From assembly GCF_036785885.1 (NCBI RefSeq), contig NC_092322.1:13476466-13540465 (forward strand): a stretch of DNA of 64,000 nucleotides. Direction: 5' to 3'. Shown piece after piece: positions 1,446 through 31,211 of the stretch (position 1 is the stretch's first letter; every line of letters begins with the position of its first letter). The DNA is from Coffea arabica. Taxonomy: Eukaryota; Streptophyta; Magnoliopsida; Gentianales; Rubiaceae. The notes below the pieces were generated by a model that saw only the letters and a list, made by a program, of their open reading frames with translations, was not told the DNA's origin and ran no database searches. The position numbers were made by a program, and so were the translations under genes.

Positions 1446-1490
1446 TCAACATTACATGCATGCATATTTTGTGGACCTTTAATTCTATTC

Positions 1491-5244: not shown

Positions 5245-5323
5245 AACCTCAGGGGAGGTAAATGTAATTAACCCTTATTTCAACTATGAAGAGAAAAATT
5301 CCTCCAACACCCTCCTGGTACCT

Positions 5324-5521
5324 GTAAGTGGAGCTCTTCATTAGTAATCTAGGCTCTGAATTTGACGTATAAAGATTGTGATTTTGACATCCTAAATTTG
5401 TTTTCTGGTCCCAAATTTCACACAACGATGTGTGCTTTTATGTACGTAACTATATTGCTTTGCAGTTGTAAAACAAATTTTAATTGTTGCTGTTCCAACT
5501 TGGAGTCTCTTATTATTGCAG
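5324..5521 (+). other. Probable 5'-UTR intron of NAGK copy 1 (repeated in every unit)
   Basis: A strong donor 'cct|gtaagtgg' is followed by a pyrimidine-rich tract and the acceptor 'ttattattgcag|atctc', about 100 bp before the ATG. An alternative acceptor 'ctttgcag' ends at 5465. The same sites recur in all units at the same spacing. Inferred from splice consensus only. Confidence 0.4.
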
Positions 5522-5623
5522 ATCTCATTGACCTGGTTCCCTGCGTTTTGCTCGGAGTGTGGTTGGTTTGGATTTCTTGTTTTGACCAAAATAGTCCACG
5601 CAAAAGGAGCATAGGCAGAAGAA

Positions 5624-6739
5624 ATGCTGTCTGCTAAATCCCTCCCCCTCTCTTCCCCTTTGATAAAAGCATCCAAATCTCCTGATGCTAATCTCACCTC
5701 AAAATACTACATAGGCATCAACAAATGGAGTAGGAAAATGTATACCAATCCTTCTCTTAGTTTTCAGAGCTCCTGCCGCGAGACTTCATCAGAACCAGTA
5801 GTTGTACCTGAAGCACGTTCCATGTCAGCACAAAACAGAGTCGATATCCTTTCGGAGGCGCTGCCTTATATACAAAAGTTTCATGGCAAGACAATTGTGG
5901 TCAAATATGGAGGTGCAGCCACGACGTCTGAGGCCCTTCAAGTACCTGTAATATCTAACTTGGTTCTTCTCCAAAATTTTGGTCTTCGCATTGTCATTGT
6001 CCATAGTGCGGGTCCTGAAATCAACCAGTGGCTTGGTAGACTGGGCTTGAAGCCCAAGTTTGGGAATGGACTCCATGTCACTGATGCAACAACCATGGAA
6101 GTTGTTGCGATGGTATTGGGGGGTAAAGTTAACAAACATCTTGTTTCCTTAATCAACAAGGCAGGGGCTTCTGCTGTTGGCTTATCTGTTACGGGACTTA
6201 CTGCTGTTGGCTTATCTGGTATGGGGGCTACTGCTGCTGGCTTATCTGGTATGGATGACCATCTTTTAACTGCCAGGCCGTCTTTCACAAATTTCGGTCT
6301 GCTTGGCTTCGTTGGTGATATAGCCACTGGGGAGCCGGCAGTGCTTCGACCACTCATTGACAATGGTTATATCCCAGTCGTTGCCTCTGTAGCTGCCGAC
6401 AAGACAGGCCGGCTATACATCATCAATGCAGACACAGTTGCGGGTGAGCTTGCTGCAGCCTTGGCAGCAGAGAAGTTAATTCTTTTGACTGATGTGGCTG
6501 GGATTCTAGAGGAGCGAGATGATCCAAGAAGTTTGGTGAAGGAAGTCGATATCGAAGGGGCGAGGAGGATGATGAATGATGAGAAGAATGCAGGTGGGAT
6601 GTTTCAAAAGGTGGATTGCTGCGTGAGGTCCGTAGCTCAAGGTGTCAGGGCTGCAAGTATAATTGATGGACGAGTACAGCACTCATTACTTCTTGAGTTT
6701 CTCACTGGTGGAGGAGCAGGAACAATGATCACTGGATAA
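5624..6739 (+). CDS. N-acetylglutamate kinase-like protein, copy 1 (divergent, 371 aa)
   Basis: An amino-acid-kinase-family protein related to plastid N-acetyl-L-glutamate kinase, which phosphorylates N-acetylglutamate in arginine synthesis. A Ser-rich N-terminus of about 65 residues looks like a plastid transit peptide. The kinase domain follows, with the VVKYGGA lysine, the DATTMEVV, INADTVAGELAAAL and LILLTDVAGIL blocks, and the C-terminal IIDGR-HSLLLE and GAGTMITG plant signatures. This is the most diverged array member. It lacks six residues (DDLSGM) of the internal repeat and reads HSAG where the others read HGAG and canonical enzymes read HGGG. Other differences include C82Y, M100T, A107V, D112N, G308R and I328N (copy-2 numbering). 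Intronless and open throughout. Whether it is active is unknown. Confidence 0.9.
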   Translation: MLSAKSLPLSSPLIKASKSPDANLTSKYYIGINKWSRKMYTNPSLSFQSSCRETSSEPVVVPEARSMSAQNRVDILSEALPYIQKFHGKTIVVKYGGAATTSEALQVPVISNLVLLQNFGLRIVIVHSAGPEINQWLGRLGLKPKFGNGLHVTDATTMEVVAMVLGGKVNKHLVSLINKAGASAVGLSVTGLTAVGLSGMGATAAGLSGMDDHLLTARPSFTNFGLLGFVGDIATGEPAVLRPLIDNGYIPVVASVAADKTGRLYIINADTVAGELAAALAAEKLILLTDVAGILEERDDPRSLVKEVDIEGARRMMNDEKNAGGMFQKVDCCVRSVAQGVRAASIIDGRVQHSLLLEFLTGGGAGTMITG

Positions 6740-7292
6740 ATTGGAGAGCTTGCACCCTCGGTAAAGCTTACGTTTGTTAACCACTTTAGAAGATCTAAAG
6801 TCAAAGCAAGTTTAGTTACAATCATCTTTATTTTCTTTGTACATATGGAGAAACTTGAAAAACGATAGCACTGGGATAATATCTACTTTCAAGAGCATGA
6901 ATCTGCTAATAAAATGGTCAAAGTTGAGAAGGTTTCGGGGCCAATTATTTTCCCCATGTTAATTTTGTAGGCACATTCTCCTCTTTCTAATGTGCTTCAG
7001 CACTAATTTTCCCCATAGCCAACAAAAGAAAAAAAAGTAAAAGCCATCTGGAAAAAAAAAAAAAACCAAAGGCAAAGAAGATTCCATTTGCTGCATTGGT
7101 CACACCTTGCAACCTAACCACTCACTGCACCTTTGCATGAAAAATTTTTAACGTATACAATCACTTTCAACTCTTCAATTTCAAATCTTAAAAACCAAAC
7201 ATGGCTATTCACGCTGTCACACTAGCTTCCAATATATAATACGATCCAAACTCCAAGGAAATTGATCTAAAACCAATTAAAAAGAAGTTGAC

Positions 7293-7398
7293 CTAGCAAG
7301 ACTGGTCTTGCTTGATGCGGTCCGCACCCAAATGGAAGCTGTGGTCGAAGGTCTTGATTAACTTGGACTGTTCATTTTGCACCCAGTAACTCCCATTT
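7293..7398 (-). pseudogene. 106-bp tail of the GRAS-derived frame, one per array unit
   Basis: The last 106 bp of every unit repeat the minus-strand 3' end of the frame at 30188-31099. The same stub recurs at 9836-9941, 12379-12484, 14923-15028, 17465-17570, 20008-20113, 22552-22657, 25095-25200 and 27640-27745. Only in unit 10 does it continue upstream into GRAS sequence. It marks one breakpoint of the founding duplication. The encoded ~35 residues (GSYWVQNEQ to KQDQSC) are not GRAS-like. Confidence 0.85.
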
Positions 7399-8148
7399 CA
7401 GGAGAGCACAAGACATGTTTTCCTCAATTTGAACCATATTTCAGGAATTAAAATAATTTCTTCTTTTTTTATTTTCCTTTCAATTTATCGAATTTTTAAT
7501 ATTCAATTTTAAGATTTAAAATAATTATTGATTCAAAACTATTTATGGAAGCAAAGATATGATTTTTATAAAGTAATAAGCAAAAATTTTTTTCTATTTT
7601 TTTAGATTGCTTCAGGGTTAATAAAATAAAAATATGTTCTTTTTTTAATGCAACATGGCCTCAATATGGGCATTTTCGGCATTAAGGGGGTTTTTGTTAA
7701 ATGTTTGATCATTCAAAGGGTGAGACCGTTATTTGGACAAATTACAGGGATTGATTGGTAATATGGTCAAACCTCAGGGGAGGTAAATGTAATTAACCCT
7801 TATTTCAACTATGAAGAGAAAAATTCCTCCAACACCCTCCTGGTACCTGTAAGTGGAGCTCTTCATTAGTAATTTAGGGTCTGAATTTGACGTATAAAGA
7901 TTGTGATTTTGACATCCTAAATTTGTTTTCTGGTCCCAAATTTCACACAACGATGTGTGCTTTTTTGTACGTAACTATATTGCTTTGCAGTTGTAAAACA
8001 AATTTTAATTGTTGCTGTTCCAACTTGGAGTCTCTTATTATTGCAGATCTCATTGACCTGGTTCCCTGCGTTTTGCTCGGAGTGTGGTTGGTTTGGATTT
8101 CTTGATTTGACCAAAATAGTCCACGCAAAAGGAGCATAGGCAGAAGAA

Positions 8149-9282
8149 ATGCTGTCTGCTAAATCCCTCCCCCTCTCTTCCCCTTTGATAAAAGCATTAA
8201 AATCTCCTGATGCTAATCTCACCTCAAAATACTACATAGGCATCAACAAATGGAGTAGGAAAATGTATACCAATCCTTCTCTTAGTTTTCAGAGCTCCTG
8301 CCGCGAGACTTCATCAGAACCAGTAGTTGTACCTGAATCACGTTCCATGTCAGCACAAAACAGAGTCGATATCCTTTCGGAGGCGCTGCCTTGCATACAA
8401 AAGTTCCATGGCAAGACAATTGTGGTCAAATATGGAGGTGCAGCCATGACGTCTGAGGCCCTTCAAGCACCTGTAATATCTGACTTGGTTCTTCTCCAAA
8501 ATTTTGGTCTTCGCATTGTCATTGTCCATGGTGCGGGTCCTGAAATCAACCAGTGGCTTGGTAGATTGGGCTTGAAGCCCAAGTTTGGGAATGGACTCCA
8601 TGTCACTGATGCAACAACCATGGAAGTTGTTGCGATGGTATTGGGGGGTAAAGTTAATAAACATCTTGTTACCTTAATCAACAAGGCAGGGGCTTCTGCT
8701 GCTGGCTTATCTGTTACGGGGCTTACTGCTGTTGGCTTATCTGGTATGGATGACTTATCTGGTATGGGGGCTACTGCTGCTGGCTTATCTGGTATGGATG
8801 ACCATCTTTTAACTGCCAGGCCGCCTTCCCCAAATTCCGGTCTGCTTGGCTTCGTTGGTGATATAGCCACTGGGGAGCCGGCAGTGCTTCGACCACTCAT
8901 TGACAATGGTTATATCCCAGTCGTTGCCTCTGTAGCTGCCGACAAGACAGGCCGGCTATACATCATCAATGCAGACACAGTTGCGGGTGAGCTTGCTGCA
9001 GCCTTGGCAGCAGAGAAGTTAATTCTTTTGACTGATGTGGCTGGGATTCTAGAGGAGCGAGATGATCCAGGAAGTTTGGTGAAGGAAGTCGATATCGAAG
9101 GGGCGAGGAGGATGATGAATGATGAGAAGATTGCAGGTGGGATGTTTCAAAAGGTGGATTGCTGCGTGAGGTCCGTAGCTCAAGGTGTCAGGGCTGCAAG
9201 TATAATTGATGGACGAGTACAGCACTCATTACTTCTTGAGTTTCTCACTGGTGGAGGAGCAGGAACAATGATCACTGGATAA
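8149..9282 (+). CDS. N-acetylglutamate kinase-like protein, copy 2 (type member, 377 aa)
   Basis: Residues 1 to ~68 form a Ser-rich, acid-poor plastid transit-like leader; the amino-acid-kinase domain covers about 88-377. By alignment to E. coli ArgB, catalytic residues are kept: K94 (K8), D276 (D162) and K335 (K217). Three ligand positions are changed: HGGG reads H127-G-A129-G (G44), GLRVT reads GLH151VT (R66), and the YNINAD of plant enzymes reads Y-I272-INAD (N158). Canonical plant NAGK has one AVGLSGxDGRLLTAR segment. Here residues 185-217 hold a 26-residue expansion built from repeated GLSGM-type units. Usual plant NAGK is about 350 residues, so the extra length is this insert. The chosen ATG is the first in frame and gives the transit peptide. 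The ancestral activity is acetylglutamate phosphorylation; present substrate use is uncertain. Confidence 0.92.
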   Translation: MLSAKSLPLSSPLIKALKSPDANLTSKYYIGINKWSRKMYTNPSLSFQSSCRETSSEPVVVPESRSMSAQNRVDILSEALPCIQKFHGKTIVVKYGGAAMTSEALQAPVISDLVLLQNFGLRIVIVHGAGPEINQWLGRLGLKPKFGNGLHVTDATTMEVVAMVLGGKVNKHLVTLINKAGASAAGLSVTGLTAVGLSGMDDLSGMGATAAGLSGMDDHLLTARPPSPNSGLLGFVGDIATGEPAVLRPLIDNGYIPVVASVAADKTGRLYIINADTVAGELAAALAAEKLILLTDVAGILEERDDPGSLVKEVDIEGARRMMNDEKIAGGMFQKVDCCVRSVAQGVRAASIIDGRVQHSLLLEFLTGGGAGTMITG

Positions 9283-10691
9283 ATTGGAGAGCTTGCACCC
9301 TCGGTAAAGCTTACGTTTGTTAACCACTTTAGAAGATCTAAAGTCAAAGCAAGTTTAGTTACAATCATCTTTATTTTCTTTGTACATATGGAGAAACTTG
9401 AAAAACGATAGCACTGGGATAATATCTACTTTCAAGAACATGAATCTGCTGATAGAATGGTCAAAGTTGAGAAGGTTTCGGGGCCACTTATTTTCCCCAT
9501 GTTAATTTTGTAGTCACATTCTCCTCTTTCTAATGTGCTTCAGCACTAATTTTCCCCATAGCCAACAAAAGAAAAAACAAGTAAAAGCCATCTGGGAAAA
9601 AAAAAAAACCAAAGGCAAAGAAGATTCCATTTGCTGCATTGGTCACACCTTGCAACCTAACCACTCACTGCACCTTTGCATGAAAAATTTTTAACGTATA
9701 CAATCACTTTCAACTCTTCAATTTCAAATCTTAAAAACAAAACATGGCTATTCACGCTGTCACACTAGCTTCCAATATATAATACGATCCAAACTCCAAG
9801 GAAATTGATCTAAAACCAATTAAAAAGAAGTTGACCTAGCAAGACTGGTCTTGCTTGATGCGGTCCGCACCCAAATGGAAGCTGTGGTCGAAGGTCTTGA
9901 TTAACTTGGACTGTTCATTTTGCACCCAGTAACTCCCATTTCAGGAGAGCACAAGACATGTTTTTCTCAATTTGAACCATATTTCAGGAATTAAAATAAT
10001 TTCTTCTTTTTTTATTTTTCTTTCAATTTATCGAATTTTTAATATTCAATTTTAAGATTTAAAATAATTATTGATTCAAAACTATTTATGGAAGCAAAGA
10101 TATGGTTTTTATAAAATAATAAGCAAAAAATTTTTTCTATTTTTTTAGATTGCTTCAGGGTTAATAAAATAAAAATATGTTCTTTTTTTAATGCAACATG
10201 GCCTCAATATGGGCATTTTCGGCATTAAGGGGGTTTTTGTTAAATGTTTGATCATTCAAAGGGTGAGACCGTTATTTGGACAAATTACAGGGATTGATTG
10301 GTAATATGGTCAAATCTCAGGGGAGGTAAATGTAATTAACCCTTATTTCAACTATGAAGAGAAAAATTCCTCCAACACCCTCCTGGTACCTGTAAGTGGA
10401 GCTCTTCATTAGTAATTTAGGGTCTGAATTTGACGTATAAAGATTGTGATTTTGACATCCTAAATTTGTTTTCTGGTCCCAAATTTCACACAACGATGTG
10501 TGCTTTTTTGTACGTAACTATATTGCTTTGCAGTTGTAAAACAAATTTTAATTGTTGCTGTTCCAACTTGGAGTCTCTTATTATTGCAGATCTCATTGAC
10601 CTGGTTCCCTGCGTTTTGCTCGGAGTGTGGTTGGTTTGGATTTCTTGCTTTGACCAAAATAGTCCACGCAAAAGGAGCATAGGCAGAAGAA

Positions 10692-11825
10692 ATGCTGTCT
10701 GCTAAATCCCTCCCCCTCTCTTCCCCTTTGATAAAAGCATTAAAATCTCCTGATGCTAATCTCACCTCAAAATACTACATAGGCATCAACAAATGGAGTA
10801 GGAAAATGTATACCAATCCTTCTCTTAGTTTTCAGAGCTCCTGCCGCGAGACTTCATCAGAACCAGTAGTTGTACCTGAATCACGTTCCATGTCAGCACA
10901 AAACAGAGTCGATATCCTTTCGGAGGCGCTGCCTTGCATACAAAAGTTCCATGGCAAGACAATTGTGGTCAAATATGGAGGTGCAGCAATGACGTCTGAG
11001 GCCCTTCAAGCACCTGTAATATCTGACTTGGTTCTTCTCCAAAATTTTGGTCTTCGCATTGTCATTGTCCATGGTGCGGGTCCTGAAATCAACCAGTGGC
11101 TTGGTAGATTGGGCTTGAAGCCCAAGTTTGGGAATGGACTCCATGTCACTGATGCAACAACCATGGAAGTTGTTGCGATGGTATTGGGGGGTAAAGTTAA
11201 TAAACATCTTGTTACCTTAATCAACAAGGCAGGGGCTTCTGCTGCTGGCTTATCTGTTACGGGGCTTACTGCTGTTGGCTTATCTGGTATGGATGACTTA
11301 TCTGGTATGGGGGCTACTGCTGCTGGCTTATCTGGTATGGATGACCATCTTTTAACTGCCAGGCCGCCTTCCCCAAATTCCGGTCTGCTTGGCTTCGTTG
11401 GTGATATAGCCACTGGGGAGCCGGCAGTGCTTCGACCACTCATTGACAATGGTTATATCCCAGTCGTTGCCTCTGTAGCTGCCGACAAGACAGGCCGGCT
11501 ATACATCATCAATGCAGACACAGTTGCGGGTGAGCTTGCTGCAGCCTTGGCAGCAGAGAAGTTAATTCTTTTGACTGATGTGGCTGGGATTCTAGAGGAG
11601 CGAGATGATCCAGGAAGTTTGGTGAAGGAAGTCGATATCGAAGGGGCGAGGAGGATGATGAATGATGAGAAGATTGCAGGTGGGATGTTTCAAAAGGTGG
11701 ATTGCTGCGTGAGGTCCGTAGCTCAAGGTGTCAGGGCTGCAAGTATAATTGATGGACGAGTACAGCACTCATTACTTCTTGAGTTTCTCACTGGTGGAGG
11801 AGCAGGAACAATGATCACTGGATAA
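10692..11825 (+). CDS. N-acetylglutamate kinase-like protein, copy 3
   Basis: Protein identical to copy 2 as read here. A private silent change (GCC to GCA at codon 99) separates the DNA. Same leader, kinase blocks and 26-residue GLSG expansion. Its unit carries 'caaatctcagg' upstream, shared with B-type units, while the coding part is A-type. Confidence 0.92.
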   Translation: MLSAKSLPLSSPLIKALKSPDANLTSKYYIGINKWSRKMYTNPSLSFQSSCRETSSEPVVVPESRSMSAQNRVDILSEALPCIQKFHGKTIVVKYGGAAMTSEALQAPVISDLVLLQNFGLRIVIVHGAGPEINQWLGRLGLKPKFGNGLHVTDATTMEVVAMVLGGKVNKHLVTLINKAGASAAGLSVTGLTAVGLSGMDDLSGMGATAAGLSGMDDHLLTARPPSPNSGLLGFVGDIATGEPAVLRPLIDNGYIPVVASVAADKTGRLYIINADTVAGELAAALAAEKLILLTDVAGILEERDDPGSLVKEVDIEGARRMMNDEKIAGGMFQKVDCCVRSVAQGVRAASIIDGRVQHSLLLEFLTGGGAGTMITG

Positions 11826-13235
11826 ATTGGAGAGCTTGCACCCTCGGTAAAGCTTACGTTTGTTAACCACTTTAGAAGATCTAAAGTCAAAGCAAGTTTA
11901 GTTACAATCATCTTTATTTTCTTTGTACATATGGAGAAACTTGAAAAACGATAGCACTGGGATAATATCTACTTTCAAGAACATGAATCTGCTGATAGAA
12001 TGGTCAAAGTTGAGAAGGTTTCGGGGCCACTTATTTTCCCCATGTTAATTTTGTAGTCACATTCTCCTCTTTCTAATGTGCTTCAGCACTAATTTTCCCC
12101 ATAGCCAACAAAAGAAAAAACAAGTAAAAGCCATCTGGGAAAAAAAAAAAACCAAAGGCAAAGAAGATTCCATTTGCTGCATTGGTCACACCTTGCAACC
12201 TAACCACTCACTGCACCTTTGCATGAAAAATTTTTAACGTATACAATCACTTTCAACTCTTCAATTTCAAATCTTAAAAACAAAACATGGCTATTCACGC
12301 TGTCACACTAGCTTCCAATATATAATACGATCCAAACTCCAAGGAAATTGATCTAAAACCAATTAAAAAGAAGTTGACCTAGCAAGACTGGTCTTGCTTG
12401 ATGCGGTCCGCACCCAAATGGAAGCTGTGGTCGAAGGTCTTGATTAACTTGGACTGTTCATTTTGCACCCAGTAACTCCCATTTCAGGAGAGCACAAGAC
12501 ATGTTTTTCCTCAATTTGAACCATATTTCAGGAATTAAAATAATTTCTTCTTTTTTTATTTTTCTTTCAATTTATCGAATTTTTAATATTCAATTTTAAG
12601 ATTTAAAATAATTATTGATTCAAAACTATTTATGGAAGCAAAGATATGGTTTTTATAAAATAATAAGCAAAAATTTTTTTCTATTTTTTTAGATTGCTTC
12701 AGGGTTAATAAAATAAAAATATGTTCTTTTTTTAATGCAACATGGCCTCAATATGGGCATTTTCGGCATTAAGGGGGTTTTTGTTAAATGTTTGATCATT
12801 CAAAGGGTGAGACCGTTATTTGGACAAATTACAGGGATTGATTGGTAATATGGTCAAATCTCAGGGGAGGTAAATGTAATTAACCCTTATTTCAACTATG
12901 AAGAGAAAAATTCCTCCAACACCCTCCTGGTACCTGTAAGTGGAGCTCTTCATTAGTAATTTAGGGTCTGAATTTGACGTATAAAGATTGTGATTTTGAC
13001 ATCCTAAATTTGTTTTCTGGTCCCAAATTTCACACAACGATGTGTGCTTTTTTGTACGTAACTATATTGCTTTGCAGTTGTAAAACAAATTTTAAATGTT
13101 GCTGTTCCAACTTGGAGTCTCTTATTATTGCAGATCTCATTGACCTGGTTCCCTGCGTTTTGCTCGGAGTGTGGTTGGTTTGGATTTCTTGCTTTGACCA
13201 AAATAGTCCACGCAAAAGGAGCATAGGCAGAAGAA

Positions 13236-14369
13236 ATGCTGTCTGCTAAATCCCTCCCCCTCTCTTCCCCTTTGATAAAAGCATTAAAATCTCCTGATGC
13301 TAATCTCACCTCAAAATACTACATAGGCATCAACAAATGGAGTAGGAAAATGTATACCAATCCTTCTCTTAGTTTTCAGAGCTCCTGCCGCGAGACTTCA
13401 TCAGAACCAGTAGTTGTACCTGAATCACGTTCCATGTCAGCACAAAACAGAGTCGATATCCTTTCGGAGGCGCTGCCTTGCATACAAAAGTTCCATGGCA
13501 AGACAATTGTGGTCAAATATGGAGGTGCAGCCATGACGTCTGAGGCCCTTCAAGCACCTGTAATATCTGACTTGGTTCTTCTCCAAAATTTTGGTCTTCG
13601 CATTGTCATTGTCCATGGTGCGGGTCCTGAAATCAACCAGTGGCTTGGTAGATTGGGCTTGAAGCCCAAGTTTGGGAATGGACTCCATGTCACTGATGCA
13701 ACAACCATGGAAGTTGTTGCGATGGTATTGGGGGGTAAAGTTAATAAACATCTTGTTACCTTAATCAACAAGGCAGGGGCTTCTGCTGCTGGCTTATCTG
13801 TTACGGGGCTTACTGCTGTTGGCTTATCTGGTATGGATGACTTATCTGGTATGGGGGCTACTGCTGCTGGCTTATCTGGTATGGATGACCATCTTTTAAC
13901 TGCCAGGCCGCCTTCCCCAAATTCCGGTCTGCTTGGCTTCGTTGGTGATATAGCCACTGGGGAGCCGGCAGTGCTTCGACCACTCATTGACAATGGTTAT
14001 ATCCCAGTCGTTGCCTCTGTAGCTGCCGACAAGACAGGCCGGCTATACATCATCAATGCAGACACAGTTGCGGGTGAGCTTGCTGCAGCCTTGGCAGCAG
14101 AGAAGTTAATTCTTTTGACTGATGTGGCTGGGATTCTAGAGGAGCGAGATGATCCAGAAAGTTTGGTGAAGGAAGTCGATATCGAAGGGGCGAGGAGGAT
14201 GATGAATGATGAGAAGATTGCAGGTGGGATGTTTCAAAAGGTGGATTGCTGCGTGAGGTCCGTAGCTCAAGGTGTCAGGGCTGCAAGTGTAATTGATGGA
14301 CGAGTACAGCACTCATTACTTCTTGAGTTTCTCACTGGTGGAGGAGCAGGAACAATGATCACTGGATAA
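13236..14369 (+). CDS. N-acetylglutamate kinase-like protein, copy 4 (B type)
   Basis: B-type member: G308E (DDPESLV) and I352V (ASVIDG) relative to copy 2, plus the leader marker 'ttttaaatgttgc'. The same three changes occur together in copies 6 and 8. G308 is in the loop after LTDVAGILEERDDP, a surface region in known structures, so a large effect on activity is not expected. Frame intact. Confidence 0.92.
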   Translation: MLSAKSLPLSSPLIKALKSPDANLTSKYYIGINKWSRKMYTNPSLSFQSSCRETSSEPVVVPESRSMSAQNRVDILSEALPCIQKFHGKTIVVKYGGAAMTSEALQAPVISDLVLLQNFGLRIVIVHGAGPEINQWLGRLGLKPKFGNGLHVTDATTMEVVAMVLGGKVNKHLVTLINKAGASAAGLSVTGLTAVGLSGMDDLSGMGATAAGLSGMDDHLLTARPPSPNSGLLGFVGDIATGEPAVLRPLIDNGYIPVVASVAADKTGRLYIINADTVAGELAAALAAEKLILLTDVAGILEERDDPESLVKEVDIEGARRMMNDEKIAGGMFQKVDCCVRSVAQGVRAASVIDGRVQHSLLLEFLTGGGAGTMITG

Positions 14370-15778
14370 ATTGGAGAGCTTGCACCCTCGGTAAAGCTTA
14401 CGTTTGTTAACCACTTTAGAAGATCTAAAGTCAAAGCAAGTTTAGTTACAATCATCTTTATTTTCTTTGTACATATGGAGAAACTTGAAAAACGATAGCA
14501 CTGGGATAATATCTACTTTCAAGAACATGAATCTGCTGATAGAATGGTCAAAGTTGAGAAGGTTTCGGGGCCACTTATTTTCCCCATGTTAATTTTGTAG
14601 TCACATTCTCCTCTTTCTAATGTGCTTCAGCACTAATTTTCCCCATAGCCAACAAAAGAAAAAACAAGTAAAAGCCATCTGGGAAAAAAAAAAAACCAAA
14701 GGCAAAGAAGATTCCATTTGCTGCATTGGTCACACCTTGCAACCTAACCACTCACTGCACCTTTGCATGAAAAATTTTTAACGTATACAATCACTTTCAA
14801 CTCTTCAATTTCAAATCTTAAAAACAAAACATGGCTATTCACGCTGTCACACTAGCTTCCAATATATAATATGATCCAAACTCCAAGGAAATTGATCTAA
14901 AACCAATTAAAAAGAAGTTGACCTAGCAAGACTGGTCTTGCTTGATGCGGTCCGCACCCAAATGGAAGCTGTGGTCGAAGGTCTTGATTAACTTGGACTG
15001 TTCATTTTGCACCCAGTAACTCCCATTTCAGGAGAGCACAAGACATGTTTTCCTCAATTTGAACCATATTTCAGGAATTAAAATAATTTTTTCTTTTTTT
15101 ATTTTTCTTTCAATTTATCGAATTTTTAATATTCAATTTTAAGATTTAAAATAATTATTGATTCAAAACTATTTATGGAAGCAAAGATATGGTTTTTATA
15201 AAATAATAAGCAAAAATTTTTTTCTATTTTTTTAGATTGCTTCAGGGTTAATAAAATAAAAATATGTTCTTTTTTTAATGCAACATGGCCTCAATATGGG
15301 CATTTTCGGCATTAAGGGGGTTTTTGTTAAATGTTTGATCATTCAAAGGGTGAGACCGTTATTTGGACAAATTACAGGGATTGATTGGTAATATGGTCAA
15401 ACCTCAGGGGAGGTAAATGTAATTAACCCTTATTTCAACTATGAAGAGAAAAATTCCTCCAACACCCTCCTGGTACCTGTAAGTGGAGCTCTTCATTAGT
15501 AATTTAGGGTCTGAATTTGACGTATAAAGATTGTGATTTTGACATCCTAAATTTGTTTTCTGGTCCCAAATTTCACACAACGATGTGTGCTTTTTTGTAC
15601 GTAACTATATTGCTTTGCAGTTGTAAAACAAATTTTAATTGTTGCTGTTCCAACTTGGAGTCTCTTATTATTGCAGATCTCATTGACCTGGTTCCCTGCG
15701 TTTTGCTCGGAGTGTGGTTGGTTTGGATTTCTTGCTTTGACCAAAATAGTCCACGCAAAAGGAGCATAGGCAGAAGAA

Positions 15779-21997: not shown

Positions 21998-23407
21998 ATT
22001 GGAGAGCTTGCACCCTCGGTAAAGCTTACGTTTGTTAACCACTTTAGAAGATCTAAAGTCAAAGCAAGTTTAGTTACAATCATCTTTATTTTCTTTGTAC
22101 ATATGGAGAAACTTGAAAAACGATAGCACTGGGATAATATCTACTTTCAAGAACATGAATCTGCTGATAGAATGGTCAAAGTTGAGAAGGTTTCGGGGCC
22201 ACTTATTTTCCCCATGTTAATTTTGTAGTCACATTCTCCTCTTTCTAATGTGCTTCAGCACTAATTTTCCCCATAGCCAACAAAAGAAAAAACAAGTAAA
22301 AGCCATCTGGGAAAAAAAAAAAAACCAAAGGCAAAGAAGATTCCATTTGCTGCATTGGTCACACCTTGCAACCTAACCACTCACTGCACCTTTGCATGAA
22401 AAATTTTTAACGTATACAATCACTTTCAACTCTTCAATTTCAAATCTTAAAAACAAAACATGGCTATTCACGCTGTCACACTAGCTTCCAATATATAATA
22501 CGATCCAAACTCCAAGGAAATTGATCTAAAACCAATTAAAAAGAAGTTGACCTAGCAAGACTGGTCTTGCTTGATGCGGTCCGCACCCAAATGGAAGCTG
22601 TGGTCGAAGGTCTTGATTAACTTGGACTGTTCATTTTGCACCCAGTAACTCCCATTTCAGGAGAGCACAAGACATGTTTTCCTCAATTTGAACCATATTT
22701 CAGGAATTAAAATAATTTCTTCTTTTTTTATTTTTCTTTCAATTTATCGAATTTTTAATATTCAATTTTAAGATTTAAAATAATTATTGATTCAAAACTA
22801 TTTATGGAAGCAAAGATATGGTTTTTATAAAATAATAAGCAAAAATTTTTTTCTATTTTTTTAGATTGCTTCAGGGTTAATAAAATAAAAATATGTTCTT
22901 TTTTTAATGCAACATGGCCTCAATATGGGCATTTTCGGCATTAAGGGGGTTTTTGTTAAATGTTTGATCATTCAAAGGGTGAGACCGTTATTTGGACAAA
23001 TTACAGGGATTGATTGGTAATATGGTCAAATCTCAGGGGAGGTAAATGTAATTAACCCTTATTTCAACTATGAAGAGAAAAATTCCTCCAACACCCTCCT
23101 GGTACCTGTAAGTGGAGCTCTTCATTAGTAATTTAGGGTCTGAATTTGACGTATAAAGATTGTGATTTTGACATCCTAAATTTGTTTTCTGGTCCCAAAT
23201 TTCACACAACGATGTGTGCTTTTTTGTACGTAACTATATTGCTTTGCAGTTGTAAAACAAATTTTAAATGTTGCTGTTCCAACTTGGAGTCTCTTATTAT
23301 TGCAGATCTCATTGACCTGGTTCCCTGCGTTTTGCTCGGAGTGTGGTTGGTTTGGATTTCTTGCTTTGACCAAAATAGTCCACGCAAAAGGAGCATAGGC
23401 AGAAGAA

Positions 23408-24541
23408 ATGCTGTCTGCTAAATCCCTCCCCCTCTCTTCCCCTTTGATAAAAGCATTAAAATCTCCTGATGCTAATCTCACCTCAAAATACTACATAGGC
23501 ATCAACAAATGGAGTAGGAAAATGTATACCAATCCTTCTCTTAGTTTTCAGAGCTCCTGCCGCGAGACTTCATCAGAACCAGTAGTTGTACCTGAATCAC
23601 GTTCCATGTCAGCACAAAACAGAGTCGATATCCTTTCGGAGGCGCTGCCTTGCATACAAAAGTTCCATGGCAAGACAATTGTGGTCAAATATGGAGGTGC
23701 AGCCATGACGTCTGAGGCCCTTCAAGCACCTGTAATATCTGACTTGGTTCTTCTCCAAAATTTTGGTCTTCGCATTGTCATTGTCCATGGTGCGGGTCCT
23801 GAAATCAACCAGTGGCTTGGTAGATTGGGCTTGAAGCCCAAGTTTGGGAATGGACTCCATGTCACTGATGCAACAACCATGGAAGTTGTTGCGATGGTAT
23901 TGGGGGGTAAAGTTAATAAACATCTTGTTACCTTAATCAACAAGGCAGGGGCTTCTGCTGCTGGCTTATCTGTTACGGGGCTTACTGCTGTTGGCTTATC
24001 TGGTATGGATGACTTATCTGGTATGGGGGCTACTGCTGCTGGCTTATCTGGTATGGATGACCATCTTTTAACTGCCAGGCCGCCTTCCCCAAATTCCGGT
24101 CTGCTTGGCTTCGTTGGTGATATAGCCACTGGGGAGCCGGCAGTGCTTCGACCACTCATTGACAATGGTTATATCCCAGTCGTTGCCTCTGTAGCTGCCG
24201 ACAAGACAGGCCGGCTATACATCATCAATGCAGACACAGTTGCGGGTGAGCTTGCTGCAGCCTTGGCAGCAGAGAAGTTAATTCTTTTGACTGATGTGGC
24301 TGGGATTCTAGAGGAGCGAGATGATCCAGAAAGTTTGGTGAAGGAAGTCGATATCGAAGGGGCGAGGAGGATGATGAATGATGAGAAGATTGCAGGTGGG
24401 ATGTTTCAAAAGGTGGATTGCTGCGTGAGGTCCGTAGCTCAAGGTGTCAGGGCTGCAAGTGTAATTGATGGACGAGTACAGCACTCATTACTTCTTGAGT
24501 TTCTCACTGGTGGAGGAGCAGGAACAATGATCACTGGATAA
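23408..24541 (+). CDS. N-acetylglutamate kinase-like protein, copy 8 (B type)
   Basis: Same protein as copies 4 and 6 (G308E, I352V). First half of the third dimer. Frame intact. Confidence 0.92.
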   Translation: MLSAKSLPLSSPLIKALKSPDANLTSKYYIGINKWSRKMYTNPSLSFQSSCRETSSEPVVVPESRSMSAQNRVDILSEALPCIQKFHGKTIVVKYGGAAMTSEALQAPVISDLVLLQNFGLRIVIVHGAGPEINQWLGRLGLKPKFGNGLHVTDATTMEVVAMVLGGKVNKHLVTLINKAGASAAGLSVTGLTAVGLSGMDDLSGMGATAAGLSGMDDHLLTARPPSPNSGLLGFVGDIATGEPAVLRPLIDNGYIPVVASVAADKTGRLYIINADTVAGELAAALAAEKLILLTDVAGILEERDDPESLVKEVDIEGARRMMNDEKIAGGMFQKVDCCVRSVAQGVRAASVIDGRVQHSLLLEFLTGGGAGTMITG

Positions 24542-25950
24542 ATTGGAGAGCTTGCACCCTCGGTAAAGCTTACGTTTGTTAACCACTTTAGAAGATCTAA
24601 AGTCAAAGCAAGTTTAGTTACAATCATCTTTATTTTCTTTGTACATATGGAGAAACTTGAAAAACGATAGCACTGGGATAATATCTACTTTCAAGAACAT
24701 GAATCTGCTGATAGAATGGTCAAAGTTGAGAAGGTTTCGGGGCCACTTATTTTCCCCATGTTAATTTTGTAGTCACATTCTCCTCTTTCTAATGTGCTTC
24801 AGCACTAATTTTCCCCATAGCCAACAAAAGAAAAAACAAGTAAAAGCCATCTGGGAAAAAAAAAAAACCAAAGGCAAAGAAGATTCCATTTGCTGCATTG
24901 GTCACACCTTGCAACCTAACCACTCACTGCACCTTTGCATGAAAAATTTTTAACGTATACAATCACTTTCAACTCTTCAATTTCAAATCTTAAAAACAAA
25001 ACATGGCTATTCACGCTGTCACACTAGCTTCCAATATATAATACGATCCAAACTCCAAGGAAATTGATCTAAAACCAATTAAAAAGAAGTTGACCTAGCA
25101 AGACTGGTCTTGCTTGATGCGGTCCGCACCCAAATGGAAGCTGTGGTCGAAGGTCTTGATTAACTTGGACTGTTCATTTTGCACCCAGTAACTCCCATTT
25201 CAGGAGAGCACAAGACATGTTTTCCTCAATTTGAACCATATTTCAGGAATTAAAATAATTTTTTCTTTTTTTATTTTTCTTTCAATTTATCGAATTTTTA
25301 ATATTCAATTTTAAGATTTAAAATAATTATTGATTCAAAACTATTTATGGAAGCAAAGATATGGTTTTTATAAAATAATAAGCAAAAATTTTTTTCTATT
25401 TTTTTAGATTGCTTCAGGGTTAATAAAATAAAAATATGTTCTTTTTTTAATGCAACATGGCCTCAATATGGGCATTTTCGGCATTAAGGGGGTTTTTGTT
25501 AAATGTTTGATCATTCAAAGGGTGAGACCGTTATTTGGACAAATTACAGGGATTGATTGGTAATATGGTCAAATCTCAGGGGAGGTAAATGTAATTAACC
25601 CTTATTTCAACTATGAAGAGAAAAATTCCTCCAACACCCTCCTGGTACCTGTAAGTGGAGCTCTTCATTAGTAATTTAGGGTCTGAATTTGACGTATAAA
25701 GATTGTGATTTTGACATCCTAAATTTGTTTTCTGGTCCCAAATTTCACACAACGATGTGTGCTTTTTTGTACGTAACTATATTGCTTTGCAGTTGTAAAA
25801 CAAATTTTAATTGTTGCTGTTCCAACTTGGAGTCTCTTATTATTGCAGATCTCATTGACCTGGTTCCCTGCGTTTTGCTCGGAGTGTGGTTGGTTTGGAT
25901 TTCTTGCTTTGACCAAAATAGTCCACGCAAAAGGAGCATAGGCAGAAGAA

Positions 25951-27084
25951 ATGCTGTCTGCTAAATCCCTCCCCCTCTCTTCCCCTTTGATAAAAGCATT
26001 AAAATCTCCTGATGCTAATCTCACCTCAAAATACTACATAGGCATCAACAAATGGAGTAGGAAAATGTATACCAATCCTTCTCTTAGTTTTCAGAGCTCC
26101 TGCCGCGAGACTTCATCAGAACCAGTAGTTGTACCTGAATCACGTTCCATGTCAGCACAAAACAGAGTCGATATCCTTTCGGAGGCGCTGCCTTGCATAC
26201 AAAAGTTCCATGGCAAGACAATTGTGGTCAAATATGGAGGTGCAGCCATGACGTCTGAGGCCCTTCAAGCACCTGTAATATCTGACTTGGTTCTTCTCCA
26301 AAATTTTGGTCTTCGCATTGTCATTGTCCATGGTGCGGGTCCTGAAATCAACCAGTGGCTTGGTAGATTGGGCTTGAAGCCCAAGTTTGGGAATGGACTC
26401 CATGTCACTGATGCAACAACCATGGAAGTTGTTGCGATGGTATTGGGGGGTAAAGTTAATAAACATCTTGTTACCTTAATCAACAAGGCAGGGGCTTCTG
26501 CTGCTGGCTTATCTGTTACGGGGCTTACTGCTGTTGGCTTATCTGGTATGGATGACTTATCTGGTATGGGGGCTACTGCTGCTGGCTTATCTGGTATGGA
26601 TGACCATCTTTTAACTGCCAGGCCGCCTTCCCCAAATTCCGGTCTGCTTGGCTTCGTTGGTGATATAGCCACTGGGGAGCCGGCAGTGCTTCGACCACTC
26701 ATTGACAATGGTTATATCCCAGTCGTTGCCTCTGTAGCTGCCGACAAGACAGGCCGGCTATACATCATCAATGCAGACACAGTTGCGGGTGAGCTTGCTG
26801 CAGCCTTGGCAGCAGAGAAGTTAATTCTTTTGACTGATGTGGCTGGGATTCTAGAGGAGCGAGATGATCCAGGAAGTTTGGTGAAGGAAGTCGATATCGA
26901 AGGGGCGAGGAGGATGATGAATGATGAGAAGATTGCAGGTGGGATGTTTCAAAAGGTGGATTGCTGCGTGAGGTCCGTAGCTCAAGGTGTCAGGGCTGCA
27001 AGTATAATTGATGGACGAGTACAGCACTCATTACTTCTTGAGTTTCTCACTGGTGGAGGAGCAGGAACAATGATCACTGGATAA
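25951..27084 (+). CDS. N-acetylglutamate kinase-like protein, copy 9 (A' type)
   Basis: Protein identical to copy 2. Its 3' flank ('gataaaatgg' and an uninterrupted A-run before 'gtaaaagcc') matches copy 10 rather than copies 2-8, so the third dimer joins the array end here. Frame intact. Confidence 0.92.
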   Translation: MLSAKSLPLSSPLIKALKSPDANLTSKYYIGINKWSRKMYTNPSLSFQSSCRETSSEPVVVPESRSMSAQNRVDILSEALPCIQKFHGKTIVVKYGGAAMTSEALQAPVISDLVLLQNFGLRIVIVHGAGPEINQWLGRLGLKPKFGNGLHVTDATTMEVVAMVLGGKVNKHLVTLINKAGASAAGLSVTGLTAVGLSGMDDLSGMGATAAGLSGMDDHLLTARPPSPNSGLLGFVGDIATGEPAVLRPLIDNGYIPVVASVAADKTGRLYIINADTVAGELAAALAAEKLILLTDVAGILEERDDPGSLVKEVDIEGARRMMNDEKIAGGMFQKVDCCVRSVAQGVRAASIIDGRVQHSLLLEFLTGGGAGTMITG

Positions 27085-28495
27085 ATTGGAGAGCTTGCAC
27101 CCTCGGTAAAGCTTACGTTTGTTAACCACTTTAGAAGATCTAAAGTCAAAGCAAGTTTAGTTACAATCATCTTTATTTTCTTTGTACATATGGAGAAACT
27201 TGAAAAACGATAGCACTGGGATAATATCTACTTTCAAGAACATGAATCTGCTGATAAAATGGTCAAAGTTGAGAAGGTTTCGGGGCCACTTATTTTCCCC
27301 ATGTTAATTTTGTAGTCACATTCTCCTCTTTCTAATGTGCTTCAGCACTAATTTTCCCCATAGCCAACAAAAGAAAAAAAAAGTAAAAGCCATCTGGAAA
27401 AAAAAAAAAAAACCAAAGGCAAAGAAGATTCCATTTGCTGCATTGGTCACACCTTGCAACCTAACCACTCACTGCACCTTTGCATGAAAAATTTTTAACG
27501 TATACAATCACTTTCAACTCTTCAATTTCAAATCTTAAAAACAAAACATGGCTATTCACGCTGTCACACTAGCTTCCAATATATAATATGATCCAAACTC
27601 CAAGGAAATTGATCTAAAACCAATTAAAAAGAAGTTGACCTAGCAAGACTGGTCTTGCTTGATGCGGTCCGCACCCAAATGGAAGCTGTGGTCGAAGGTC
27701 TTGATTAACTTGGACTGTTCATTTTGCACCCAGTAACTCCCATTTCAGGAGAGCACAAGACATGTTTTCCTCAATTTGAACCATATTTCAGGAATTAAAA
27801 TAATTTCTTCTTTTTTTATTTTTCTTTCAATTTATCGAATTTTTAATATTCAATTTTAAGATTTAAAATAATTATTGATTCAAAACTATTTATGGAAGCA
27901 AAGATATGGTTTTTATAAAATAATAAGCAAAAATTTTTTTCTATTTTTTTAGATTGCTTCAGGGTTAATAAAATAAAAATATGTTCTTTTTTTAATGCAA
28001 CATGGCCTCAATATGGGCATTTTCGGCATTAAGGGGGTTTTTGTTAAATGTTTGATCATTCAAAGGGTGAGACCGTTATTTGGACAAATTACAGGGATTG
28101 ATTGGTAATATGGTCAAACCTCAGGGGAGGTAAATGTAATTAACCCTTATTTCAACTATGAAGAGAAAAATTCCTCCAACACCCTCCTGGTACCTGTAAG
28201 TGGAGCTCTTCATTAGTAATTTAGGGTCTGAATTTGACGTATAAAGATTGTGATTTTGACATCCTAAATTTGTTTTCTGGTCCCAAATTTCACACAACGA
28301 TGTGTGCTTTTTTGTACGTAACTATATTGCTTTGCAGTTGTAAAACAAATTTTAATTGTTGCTGTTCCAACTTGGAGTCTCTTATTATTGCAGATCTCAT
28401 TGACCTGGTTCCCTGCGTTTTGCTCGGAGTGTGGTTGGTTTGGATTTCTTGCTTTGACCAAAATAGTCCACGCAAAAGGAGCATAGGCAGAAGAA

Positions 28496-29629
28496 ATGCT
28501 GTCTGCTAAATCCCTCCCCCTCTCTTCCCCTTTGATAAAAGCATTAAAATCTCCTGATGCTAATCTCACCTCAAAATACTACATAGGCATCAACAAATGG
28601 AGTAGGAAAATGTATACCAATCCTTCTCTTAGTTTTCAGAGCTCCTGCCGCGAGACTTCATCAGAACCAGTAGTTGTACCTGAATCACGTTCCATGTCAG
28701 CACAAAACAGAGTCGATATCCTTTCGGAGGCGCTGCCTTGCATACAAAAGTTCCATGGCAAGACAATTGTGGTCAAATATGGAGGTGCAGCCATGACGTC
28801 TGAGGCCCTTCAAGCACCTGTAATATCTGACTTGGTTCTTCTCCAAAATTTTGGTCTTCGCATTGTCATTGTCCATGGTGCGGGTCCTGAAATCAACCAG
28901 TGGTTTGGTAGATTGGGCTTGAAGCCCAAGTTTGGGAATGGACTCCATGTCACTGATGCAACAACCATGGAAGTTGTTGCGATGGTATTGGGGGGTAAAG
29001 TTAATAAACATCTTGTTACCTTAATCAACAAGGCAGGGGCTTCTGCTGCTGGCTTATCTGTTACGGGGCTTACTGCTGTTGGCTTATCTGGTATGGATGA
29101 CTTATCTGGTATGGGGGCTACTGCTGCTGGCTTATCTGGTATGGATGACCATCTTTTAACTGCCAGGCCGCCTTCCCCAAATTCCGGTCTGCTTGGCTTC
29201 GTTGGTGATATAGCCACTGGGGAGCCGGCAGTGCTTCGACCACTCATTGACAATGGTTATATCCCAGTCGTTGCCTCTGTAGCTGCCGACAAGACAGGCC
29301 GGCTATACATCATCAATGCAGACACAGTTGCGGGTGAGCTTGCTGCAGCCTTGGCAGCAGAGAAGTTAATTCTTTTGACTGATGTGGCTGGGATTCTATA
29401 GGAGCGAGATGATCCAGGATGTTTGGGGAAAGAAGTCGATATCGAAGGGGCGAGGAGGATGATGAATGATGAGAAGATTGCAGGTGGGATGTTTCAAAAG
29501 ATGGATTGCTGCGTGAGGTCCGTAGCTCAAGGTGTCAGGGCTGCAAGTATAATTGATGGACGAGTACAGCACTCATTACTTCTTGAGTTTCTCACTGGTG
29601 GAGGAGCAGGAACAATGATCACTGGATAA
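28496..29629 (+). pseudogene. N-acetylglutamate kinase-like copy 10, nonsense-interrupted
   Basis: Last array member, next to the GRAS gene. The frame is as in copy 2 up to residue 301, where codon 302 (GAG) has become TAG. Translation would end after LTDVAGIL, losing the C-terminal ~75 residues with the nucleotide-site lysine (K335 in copy 2) and the arginine-site and PII-contact region of plant NAGK. Further changes lie at L137F, S309C, V311G and V336M. A downstream in-frame ATG (29423) opens only a 68-residue tail. Very probably a non-functional edge copy. Confidence 0.88.
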
Positions 29630-30187
29630 ATTGGAGAGCTTGCACCCTCGGTAAAGCTTACGTTTGTTAACCACTTTAGAAGATCTAAAGTCAAAGCAAG
29701 TTTAGTTACAATCATCTTTATTTTCTTTGTACATATGGAGAAACTTGAAAAACGATAGCACTGGGATAATATCTACTTTCAAGAACATGAATCTGCTGAT
29801 AAAATGGTCAAAGTTGAGAAGGTTTCGGGGCCACTTATTTTCCCCATGTTAATTTTGTAGTCACATTCTCCTCTTTCTAATGTGCTTCAGCACTAATTTT
29901 CCCCATAGCCAACAAAAGAAAAAAAAAGTAAAAGCCATCTGGAAAAAAAAAAAAAAAAAACCAAAGGCAAAGAAGATTCCATTTGCTGCATTGGTCACAC
30001 CTTGCAACCTAACCACTCACTGCACCTTTGCATGAAAAAGTTTTAACGTATACAATCACTTTCAACTCTTCAATTTCAAATCTTAAAAACAAAACATGGC
30101 TATTCACGCTGTCACACTAGCTTCCAATATATAATATGATCCAAACTCCAAGGAAATTGATCTAAAACCAATTAAAAAGAAGTTGAC

Positions 30188-31211
30188 CTAGCAAGACTGG
30201 TCTTGCTTGATGCGGTCCGCACCCAAATGGAAGCTGTGGTCGAAGGTCTTGATTAACTTGGACTGTTCATTTTGCACCCAGTAACTCCCATTTATCTTTG
30301 GGGACAGTTTCCTCAAACCGTTGAAAAATGTTTCGACCAACGAGCTTTCTCTATGAGGCATGTGAAGCTGATTGATCATACAATTAGCTATCAGGGTATG
30401 CCCTACTTTGATCTCTTCAAAATCTTCTTCTTTCTTTATCAGAACTTGGTCAGAGGAGAAAGAAAGATTGATTGAATTTGCGAAATCTTGTAATCTAAAA
30501 CCTGTTTGTTGAATATTACATGAACTTCCTTTGTCGCCAACAATAGCTGTTATCCTAAGAGATGCATCTTCTCTAGCAGCAAGGTCAACCATCAAAGAAG
30601 GCCATTGAATTCCTTCCATGAAGTCAAAATCAATAACATGAATCTCCCGATGACCTTCGGTTGCCTCCAGGATTGCCTGGTTGGCTGTGAAATGCGCGAA
30701 CTTCACATATGGCGAGAGCTCCTGCAGCATTTGGAAGGCTGAGATAGCATTGGTTTGTCGGGAAACAGGGTTCTCCGGATGCTCAGGAGCAGTGAGGCTC
30801 TTGTCAAGAAGGCCCTGAGTGAAGTATAAAGCTAACCTATCCATTGGATTGTCACCATTTTCTTGATCAGATAGGATATCCTTGAGCCTGGGTGCAACTA
30901 TTGAAGCAAGACGAACATTTCCTGCTTCAATAGCTTCTGCCCCCATCAGCAGCAGACCAGTTAAGCTGCTCTCTTCCATGAGTTCATCTTGAATATCCTT
31001 CAAATGGGATTGCTCAGCAGCCAAAAAATCCATAGTTTCTTTGGATATCTCGACAGGGGAACAATCTTTTGTGTACCATGTTTTCGTGGTGTAAAGCACA
31101 ATTTTTAGCTATGAAATCGAAATCCTTGATATCTGTTTCCATTTCAAGAAACTTTTCAGTGCTAACAATATCACTGGAGACATAATCTTGGAAATAATAA
31201 GGTTGAATCAA
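30188..31211 (-). pseudogene. GRAS-family transcription regulator, NSP2/SCL26-like, truncated
   Basis: The 303-codon frame at 30188-31099 shows the N-terminal half of a GRAS domain. A leucine-rich LHRI block (SSLTGLLLMGAEAIEAGN, then DRLALYFTQGL) is followed by the VHIID motif as HVIDFDFMEGIQWPSLM and a second leucine-rich block ending in LRKLSPKI. The PFYRE and SAW blocks are missing. After SPKI the frame runs into 35 unrelated residues inside the NAGK array unit and stops. The likely N-terminus (MIQPYYFQDY, from 31211) lies in another frame, so there is a one-base shift between about 31040 and 31120, or a sequencing error. GRAS proteins are nuclear regulators; NSP2-type members act in symbiosis and strigolactone signalling. 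This copy is probably not functional. Confidence 0.8.

What the first reader, a model, noticed from the sequence alone, without database searches (positions are those of the whole stretch)
5245..30293. Ten-copy tandem amplification of an N-acetylglutamate kinase-like gene
NAGK is the regulated step of arginine synthesis and is normally kept at low copy in plants. Here ten head-to-tail units of ~2.54 kb each carry a full promoter, leader, gene and 3' region. Nine frames are open, and proteins of copies 2-9 differ at only two positions. Such an array looks like dosage amplification or a new plastid enzyme family, and may be undescribed. The near identity also raises the question of assembly accuracy.
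Basis: partly seen in the sequence, partly recalled or inferred. Interest (0 to 1): 0.85.

Follow-up and report, generated by a model that had tools for sequence, protein, structure and literature searches.

The report
Ten-copy array of altered kinase paralogue
In the coffee genome a side-copy of an arginine-synthesis gene has recently been repeated ten times in a row, apparently starting at a hairpin-prone mobile element, but the copies have lost residues needed to bind the usual substrate, so they are probably not extra working enzyme.

Summary
The array is real in the assembly: ten head-to-tail units at 5245-30293, nine open frames, a tenth with a TAG and a short 3' end. The genome matches the published Coffea arabica HiFi assembly. 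The homeologous chromosome has one copy at this site, and separate NAGK loci lie 0.73 Mb away and on the homeolog, so one homeolog has expanded a duplicated paralogue. "More NAGK dosage" is not supported. All ten copies have lost NAG-site residues (E. coli numbering R66 to H, N158 to I, G44 to A) that 79 of 79 comparison NAGKs keep, and carry a 20-26-residue insertion repeating what I infer is the dimer-interface strand. Coding substitutions show no amino-acid constraint (omega 1.2-1.4), yet frames stay open. Each unit junction holds half of a ~792-bp palindromic Mutator-like MITE, cut 0.5-3 bp from its centre. The other breakpoint lies in a neighbouring GRAS gene, exactly where that gene has a ~330-bp deletion. 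Best reading: a break at the palindrome centre seeded a tandem duplication, and unequal crossing-over (visible as a dimeric pattern in u3-u8) expanded it, giving a young array of NAGK-fold pseudokinase genes, probably nearly neutral. Expression, read depth and activity are untested.

The parts
5245..30293 (+). ten-unit tandem array
   Evidence: self-alignment and unit alignment
5245..7769 (+). unit 1 (most diverged, 1.5%; lacks the 18-bp part of the insertion)
7770..28116 (+). units 2-9 (starts 7770, 10313, 12857, 15400, 17942, 20485, 23029, 25572); u3u4/u5u6/u7u8 form a dimeric higher-order repeat
28117..30293 (+). unit 10, truncated at the 3' end, frame interrupted by TAG at 29399-29401
5624..6739 (+). 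u1 NAGK-like frame, 371 aa
   Evidence: Pfam AA_kinase, TIGR00761 above cut-off
8149..9282 (+). u2 NAGK-like frame, 377 aa (same frame in u3-u9 at 10692, 13236, 15779, 18321, 20864, 23408, 25951)
   Evidence: u2 scanned
8706..8802 (+). in-frame internal repeat that copies the AVGLSG strand (inferred beta5); equivalent repeats in the other units
   Evidence: TRF; protein alignment; model
5245..5274 (+). 30-bp MITE terminus left upstream of u1 (deletion through AACCTCAG microhomology inferred)
7401..7769 (+). MITE half between u1 and u2 (others: 9944-10312, 12487-12856, 15031-15399, 17573-17941, 20116-20484, 22660-23028, 25203-25571, 27748-28116); its outer end continues ~30 bp into the next unit
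5368..5374 (+). TATAAAG, present in u1, u2, the C14 single copy and the C13 NAGK locus
30293..30294 (.). right end of array; same breakpoint (CCCATTT) as the unit/MITE junctions; ~330-bp deletion relative to the paralogous locus
30188..31258 (-). broken GRAS gene (N-terminus missing, internal deletion at 30293); 492/491-residue stop-free frames at the C13 and C14 NAGK loci

Best explanation
This is a recent tandem amplification of a non-canonical NAGK paralogue on one homeolog of an allotetraploid coffee. Steps: (1) a segment holding NAGK plus a GRAS gene was duplicated ~0.73 Mb away before the two subgenomes split (inferred from shared gene order and from a copy at both homeologs). (2) A ~792-bp palindromic Mutator-like MITE inserted just upstream of the gene in the C13 copy (shown by the residual MITE end and halves). 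(3) The MITE extruded a hairpin or cruciform and was broken at its centre. The broken end was joined to a second break inside the GRAS gene, giving the first tandem duplication with a half-MITE junction (inferred from breakpoints 0.5-3 bp from the palindrome centre and a shared GRAS breakpoint). (4) Unequal crossing-over between the ~2.5-kb repeats, partly as two-unit blocks, raised the number to ten and homogenised u2-u9 (inferred from the dimeric variant pattern in u3-u8 and the diverged end units). (5) The encoded protein keeps the amino-acid-kinase fold and catalytic lysines but has lost the NAG pocket, so it most likely has no useful NAGK activity. If made, it is probably a plastid-targeted pseudokinase. 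The array is most likely the product of local instability on a relaxed gene rather than of selection for NAGK dosage.
For: Array and variants. One copy at the same site on C14 (94.8% identity to u2 over 911 bp). Genome-wide, 13 argB-like frames over the cut-off (10 array, 3 others) plus 4 weak matches below it; Arabidopsis query finds the same 13 and a truncated piece. [NAGK + 3' region + GRAS] at C13:14.23 Mb and C14:15.95 Mb. MITE 791-794 bp, perfect 9-bp target duplications in 5 of 5 copies fetched, array half starting 0.5, 2, 2.5, 2.5 and 3 bp from centre. Shared CCCATTT breakpoint. R66, N158 and G44 lost while 79 of 79 others keep them; R66 and N158 matter for NAG affinity: PMC2851564, passages. 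Substitutions N:S 87:26 against ~2.7:1 with no constraint; ML omega 1.21 and 1.40. Fold retained, insertion disordered. Palindrome-centre breaks as a known source of rearrangement and amplification: PMC7999016, passages.
Against: Frames are better kept than neutrality predicts: 0 stops where ~3.7 were expected (P 0.025), and 2 in-frame indel events where ~16 were expected from nearby non-coding DNA (P ~1e-5). This suggests that coding capacity mattered, at least before the array formed; the indel yardstick is AT-rich non-coding sequence, so that P is optimistic. On the array branch alone (32 N: 14 S) omega 0.5 is not rejected (P 0.058), and some regional values are below 1 (down to 0.55). No amino-acid constraint is visible even between the two loci I call canonical (11 N: 2 S), and both carry L65S in the NAG pocket, so the genome's working NAGK is not proved. 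The 77 bacterial comparison loci were fetched with peptide patterns, of which GGPEINQW and QSYNINAD cover G44 and N158, so conservation there is partly built in; R66 is in no pattern, and E. coli, Arabidopsis and Synechococcus keep all three. The C14 copy is a mosaic, which blurs the branch counts. The order of MITE break and GRAS break is inferred from one locus.
Confidence: 0.66

Rival explanations
1. Regulatory pseudo-subunit: the array makes a NAGK-fold protein that cannot bind NAG but co-assembles with the real NAGK hexamer (or binds PII) and changes its arginine or nitrogen control; copy number sets how much is made.
For: Fold, N-terminal helix, catalytic lysines and C-terminal domain are retained; frames are kept open beyond neutral expectation; omega is slightly above 1. 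An acetylglutamate kinase protein, copy unknown, is listed in arabica cherries (PMC10094060, figure-legend passage).
Against: The insertion lies at what I infer to be beta5, the strand that PMC3329491 gives as pairing across the dimer, and the model leaves it disordered; no expression data for any copy; no P-II gene found exon by exon (0 matches, inconclusive because such genes are probably intron-rich, recalled).
Confidence: 0.18
2. Dosage amplification of working NAGK selected for more arginine synthesis.
For: Nine open genes with an internal TATA-like box; catalytic K8, D162, K217 and glycines 11, 45, 184, 213 are kept.
Against: R66H, N158I and G44A in every copy against 79 of 79 conserved; insertion at the inferred interface; no amino-acid constraint; ancestral upstream flank missing in u2-u10.
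Confidence: 0.06
3. Assembly artefact: fewer units exist and the assembler repeated a block.
For: u6 and u8 are identical and u5u6/u7u8 differ by 1 substitution and 2 gap columns; no reads could be checked.
Against: u1, u2, u3, u5 (a one-base gap) and u10 carry private variants, u4, u7 and u9 unique combinations; end units are graded; the assembly is HiFi (hifiasm) from a di-haploid accession (PMC11018527, abstract in listing and passages).
Confidence: 0.07

Closest known systems
Plant plastid N-acetyl-L-glutamate kinase (Arabidopsis NAGK, PDB 2RD5/4USJ)
   Same: 65-66% identity over the mature part, same fold (2rd5_A TM 0.96 normalised to target), N-terminal helix, catalytic lysines and aspartate
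   Different: R66, N158 and G44 replaced; 20-26-residue insertion repeating the inferred beta5 strand; ten tandem copies
CUP1 tandem arrays of yeast (PMC4232551)
   Same: Tandem array built from a single gene by a non-homologous first junction (abstract and start of introduction seen)
   Different: CUP1 encodes a copper-binding metallothionein; here the junction is the centre of a palindromic MITE and the product looks inactive
Palindrome- or cruciform-initiated breakage and amplification (PMC7999016)
   Same: A break at a palindrome gives ends that seed rearrangement and amplification (passages)
   Different: The passages seen describe mostly palindromic (inverted) duplications; here the product is a direct tandem repeat joined to half a palindrome
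Mutator-like MITEs with long inverted repeats
   Same: 9-bp target duplications, ~390-bp arms, small size; family label recalled, no TE library searched
   Different: Array copies are halves, repeated nine times as part of the unit

Membership tests
N-acetylglutamate kinase (argB) | Amino-acid-kinase domain and argB model above cut-off | tested here: met
   PF00696 137 bits; TIGR00761 237.5 bits against cut-off 151.3 for u2
N-acetylglutamate kinase (argB) | Catalytic Lys8, Asp162, Lys217 and ATP-loop glycines 11, 45, 184, 213 (residue list from PMC3329491) | tested here: met
   All kept in u1 and u2
N-acetylglutamate kinase (argB) | NAG-binding Arg66 and Asn158 (PMC2851564) | tested here: not met
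   H and I in u1 and u2 and in the u3-u10 frames printed; R and N in 79 of 79 comparison sequences, E. coli and the three other coffee loci; N158 lies in a fetch pattern
N-acetylglutamate kinase (argB) | Gly44 of the GGG loop | tested here: not met
   A in array, E in the C14 single copy; G in 79 of 79, though G44 lies in a fetch pattern; G also in E. coli, Arabidopsis, Synechococcus
N-acetylglutamate kinase (argB) | Uninterrupted beta5 strand at the dimer interface (PMC3329491) | tested here: not met
   26-residue insertion in u2, residues 186-205 pLDDT under 50; control C13 model has a clean strand 184-188; that this strand is beta5 is my inference from its place after the long helix
N-acetylglutamate kinase (argB) | N-terminal helix of arginine-sensitive NAGKs | tested here: met
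   Helix 69-86 in both models
N-acetylglutamate kinase (argB) | Phosphorylation of N-acetylglutamate | not testable with these tools
   needs an assay
N-acetylglutamate kinase (argB) | Plastid targeting | tested here: inconclusive
   ~65-residue low-confidence leader shared with the other coffee copies; no predictor available
Long-TIR Mutator-like MITE | 9-bp target site duplication | tested here: met
   5 of 5 dispersed copies fetched, chosen from the 66 matches listed, where 40 of 275 candidates were scored
Long-TIR Mutator-like MITE | Terminal inverted repeats reaching nearly to the centre | tested here: met
   791-794 bp, 91-94% identical to their own reverse complement, 5 of 5

The most novel reading that the evidence does not exclude
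A plant has evolved a multicopy, fast-changing NAGK pseudokinase that is kept as a coding gene and retunes the arginine gatekeeper by mixed assembly or by competing for PII, with copy number as the dial. The array was created by cutting a palindromic transposon at its centre.
Probability: 0.12. Interest if true: 0.75.

Novelty: new variant of a known kind. Interest (0 to 1): 0.45.

Why it matters
The locus preserves what looks like the first junction of a gene amplification at nucleotide resolution: half a palindromic MITE cut at its centre and joined to a break in the neighbouring gene. Centre-of-palindrome breakage as a starter of tandem (not inverted) gene arrays in plants can be tested there with other coffee accessions. 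It also shows why copy counts and automatic 'acetylglutamate kinase' labels can mislead: these genes pass the argB model but have lost residues of the substrate pocket. If the protein is made, it is a test case for pseudokinase control of arginine synthesis.

Tried and rejected
Canonical NAGK hidden elsewhere with introns: the argB model and an Arabidopsis protein query found only the 13 frames, one truncated piece and four weak sub-cut-off matches; rejected for this assembly, with the tool's caveat that only best candidates are scored (19 of 19 and 14 of 14 here). MITE originally downstream of the gene: rejected, because its outer end, not its centre, faces the next unit and a 30-bp MITE end sits upstream of u1. 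Positive selection as a firm claim: rejected, 87:26 is not above neutral (P 0.18). Recency of open frames as proof of function: rejected, u2-u9 are too similar for nine frames to count as nine observations. PII partner search: 0 matches, inconclusive. Arginine-site and PII-contact residues: no residue list found in the passages searched, so not tested. Literature: no paper on an NAGK array, or on NAGK in coffee beyond a proteome figure legend, was seen in the listings (one search showed 12 of 2,834). Most subscription papers are not in that library.
Full report
OBSERVATION. Self-comparison of the window returns a tandem family at 5245-30293. Cut at the repeat boundaries it gives ten units: u1 2525 bp, u2-u9 2542-2545 bp, u10 2177 bp. 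u2-u9 differ on average by 0.20%; u1 differs from them by 1.5% and u10 by 0.56%. Nine frames are open (371 aa in u1, 377 aa in u2-u9); u10 has a TAG after codon 301. The finding as observed is confirmed.

WHERE IT IS. The window lies at C13:13476466-13540465 of a 1,197,963,845-base genome in 131 contigs. This fits the Coffea arabica HiFi assembly, given as 1,198 Mb and 132 scaffolds (PMC11018527, passages). An exon from C2 aligns at 128 of 136 residues (counted by eye) with each of two caffeine-pathway methyltransferases of known structure, 2EFJ and 2EG5; that these are from Coffea canephora is recalled. C13 and C14 look like a homeologous pair: the longer blocks of the right flank align to C14 at 92-95%. 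Which is the canephora and which the eugenioides chromosome was not determined.

RELATIVES IN THE SAME GENOME. An argB model and an Arabidopsis NAGK query each find the ten array copies and three other full, uninterrupted frames: C14:15,154,808-15,155,860 (+), the positional counterpart of the array, one copy, 350 aa; C13:14,233,376-14,234,428 (-); and C14:15,953,759-15,954,811 (-). Four weak matches on C3, C4, C11 and C12 lie below the argB cut-off. A truncated N-terminal piece, 97.6% identical to u1 over 497 bp, starts at C13:13,456,401 or before. The 14.23-Mb and 15.95-Mb loci carry, in the same order, the NAGK gene, the unit's 3' region and a GRAS gene with 492/491-residue stop-free frames. 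The array locus carries the same order with a broken GRAS gene, so I infer that it descends from a segmental duplicate of that NAGK-GRAS block which predates the split of the two homeologs. At the C14 counterpart, homology stops about 30 bp after the stop codon; the 3' region was not found in the 60 kb read, and the GRAS query found only 70-bp pieces there. That copy is also a mosaic: closer to u2 in the first part of the gene and to the C13 NAGK locus in the middle, which suggests gene conversion and blurs branch counts.

ANATOMY OF A UNIT. Each unit u1-u9 ends in 369-370 bp that is one half of a dispersed element. In five genomic copies fetched, the element is 791-794 bp, nearly a perfect palindrome, flanked in 5 of 5 by perfect 9-bp target duplications. 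That is the signature of a Mutator-like MITE (label recalled). The array half begins 0.5-3 bp from the centre of symmetry in all five comparisons, and its outer end runs about 30 bp into the start of the next unit. Upstream of u1 only this 30-bp end remains (5245-5274), set against host sequence that shares AACCTCAG with the MITE end; loss of the MITE body there through that microhomology is my inference. At the other side, the unit/MITE junctions and the right end of u10 both break at the same CCCATTT. In u10 the sequence then jumps about 330 bp relative to the intact locus, inside the GRAS coding sequence. A shared breakpoint suggests one joined event rather than two.

HOW THE ARRAY GREW. 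Variant columns show u3u4, u5u6 and u7u8 as near copies of one two-unit block (1 to 4 substitutions between blocks). u6 and u8 are identical; u9 and u10 share variants, some of them also in u1. Diverged ends, homogenised middle and a dimeric period are what unequal crossing-over leaves. They also argue against a simple assembler loop, although one block could be miscounted.

WHAT THE PROTEIN IS. Pfam, NCBIfam and structure searches all place it in NAGK. Against E. coli NAGK, Lys8, Asp162, Lys217 and glycines 11, 45, 184 and 213 are kept (roles from PMC3329491, section 7 read). Arg66 is His, Asn158 is Ile and Gly44 is Ala in the array (u1 also Gly43 to Ser). These three sites are invariant in 79 of 79 other sequences (77 bacterial, Arabidopsis, Synechococcus; 3 of 80 bacterial loci dropped). 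A caution: the bacterial loci were fetched with peptide patterns, and two of these cover Gly44 and Asn158, so only Arg66 is free of that bias in the bacterial set; E. coli, Arabidopsis and Synechococcus, not fetched that way, keep all three. Arg66 and Asn158 underlie the affinity for NAG (PMC2851564, passages). The insertion is 20 residues in u1 and 26 in u2, with one more residue further on, and repeats the AVGLSG strand. From its place after the long helix of the C13 model I take this to be beta5, the strand that pairs across the dimer (PMC3329491). The model of u2 keeps the fold (TM 0.96 to 2RD5_A, normalised to target) but leaves residues 186-205 at pLDDT under 50, while the C13 control has a clean strand there. 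Loss of NAG kinase activity is therefore likely but not assayed.

SELECTION. Over the whole frame dN/dS is 0.93-1.79 in the 14 of 15 pairs where it could be computed; regional values run from 0.55 to 1.83. Substitutions sorted by branch total 87 non-synonymous to 26 synonymous, 12 sites set aside, against about 2.7:1 for no constraint; ML omega is 1.21 and 1.40. Over the whole tree omega of 0.5 or less is rejected; on the array branch alone (32:14) omega 0.3 is rejected but 0.5 is not (P 0.058); positive selection is not shown (P 0.18). Yet no stop lies in the frames compared (3.7 expected, P 0.025; u10, with its TAG, was not among them), and coding indels are few and in frame. So the reading frame mattered while amino acids were free to change, or decay has only begun. 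This counts against a simple dead-pseudogene reading, and the same lack of constraint holds for the loci I treat as canonical, which carry L65S. The C13 locus has an ordinary overall rate since Arabidopsis (26 against 21 private changes; u2 30 against 18), so I take C13:14.23 Mb as the best candidate for the working gene, without proof.

EXPRESSION. Nothing in these tools measures it. A TATAAAG is at the same place in 4 of 4 sequences checked (u1, u2, C14 single copy, C13 locus). The conserved flank upstream of 5245 is not carried by u2-u10. An acetylglutamate kinase entry (copy unknown) is listed for arabica cherries (PMC10094060, figure-legend passage).

VERDICT. A real, young array of a NAGK-fold gene, on one homeolog, whose NAG pocket has lost key residues. 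It was probably seeded by breakage at the centre of a palindromic MITE and grown by unequal exchange. Dosage amplification of NAGK is unlikely; a regulatory pseudo-subunit remains open.

Noticed in passing
window 1-4014 and L017 (10 kb upstream): A 1.54-kb non-coding satellite-like tandem repeat (~95% identity; seven full and three partial copies over 14 kb) abuts the NAGK array; no match in the 60 kb of C14 read.
   Followed up: partly
L149 (C13:13456401-13457600): A truncated NAGK copy, 97.6% identical to u1 over 497 bp and cut off by an AT microsatellite.
   Followed up: partly
window 45663-48813 (-): Fragments of an R1-type NB-LRR resistance gene spread over several short frames.
   Followed up: no
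L010 and L011 (C14 just after the single-copy gene): The C14 counterpart loses homology about 30 bp after its stop codon and has about 17 kb of sequence without a match at the C13 locus before synteny resumes.
   Followed up: partly
window 50026-50532 and 57173-57682: A dispersed direct repeat, 87% identical.
   Followed up: no
L001/L002 and L010: The five coffee sequences compared have Gln where the 79 others have Pro just before the catalytic Lys (E. coli has Val), and the three non-array copies also changed Leu65 of the NAG pocket.
   Followed up: partly
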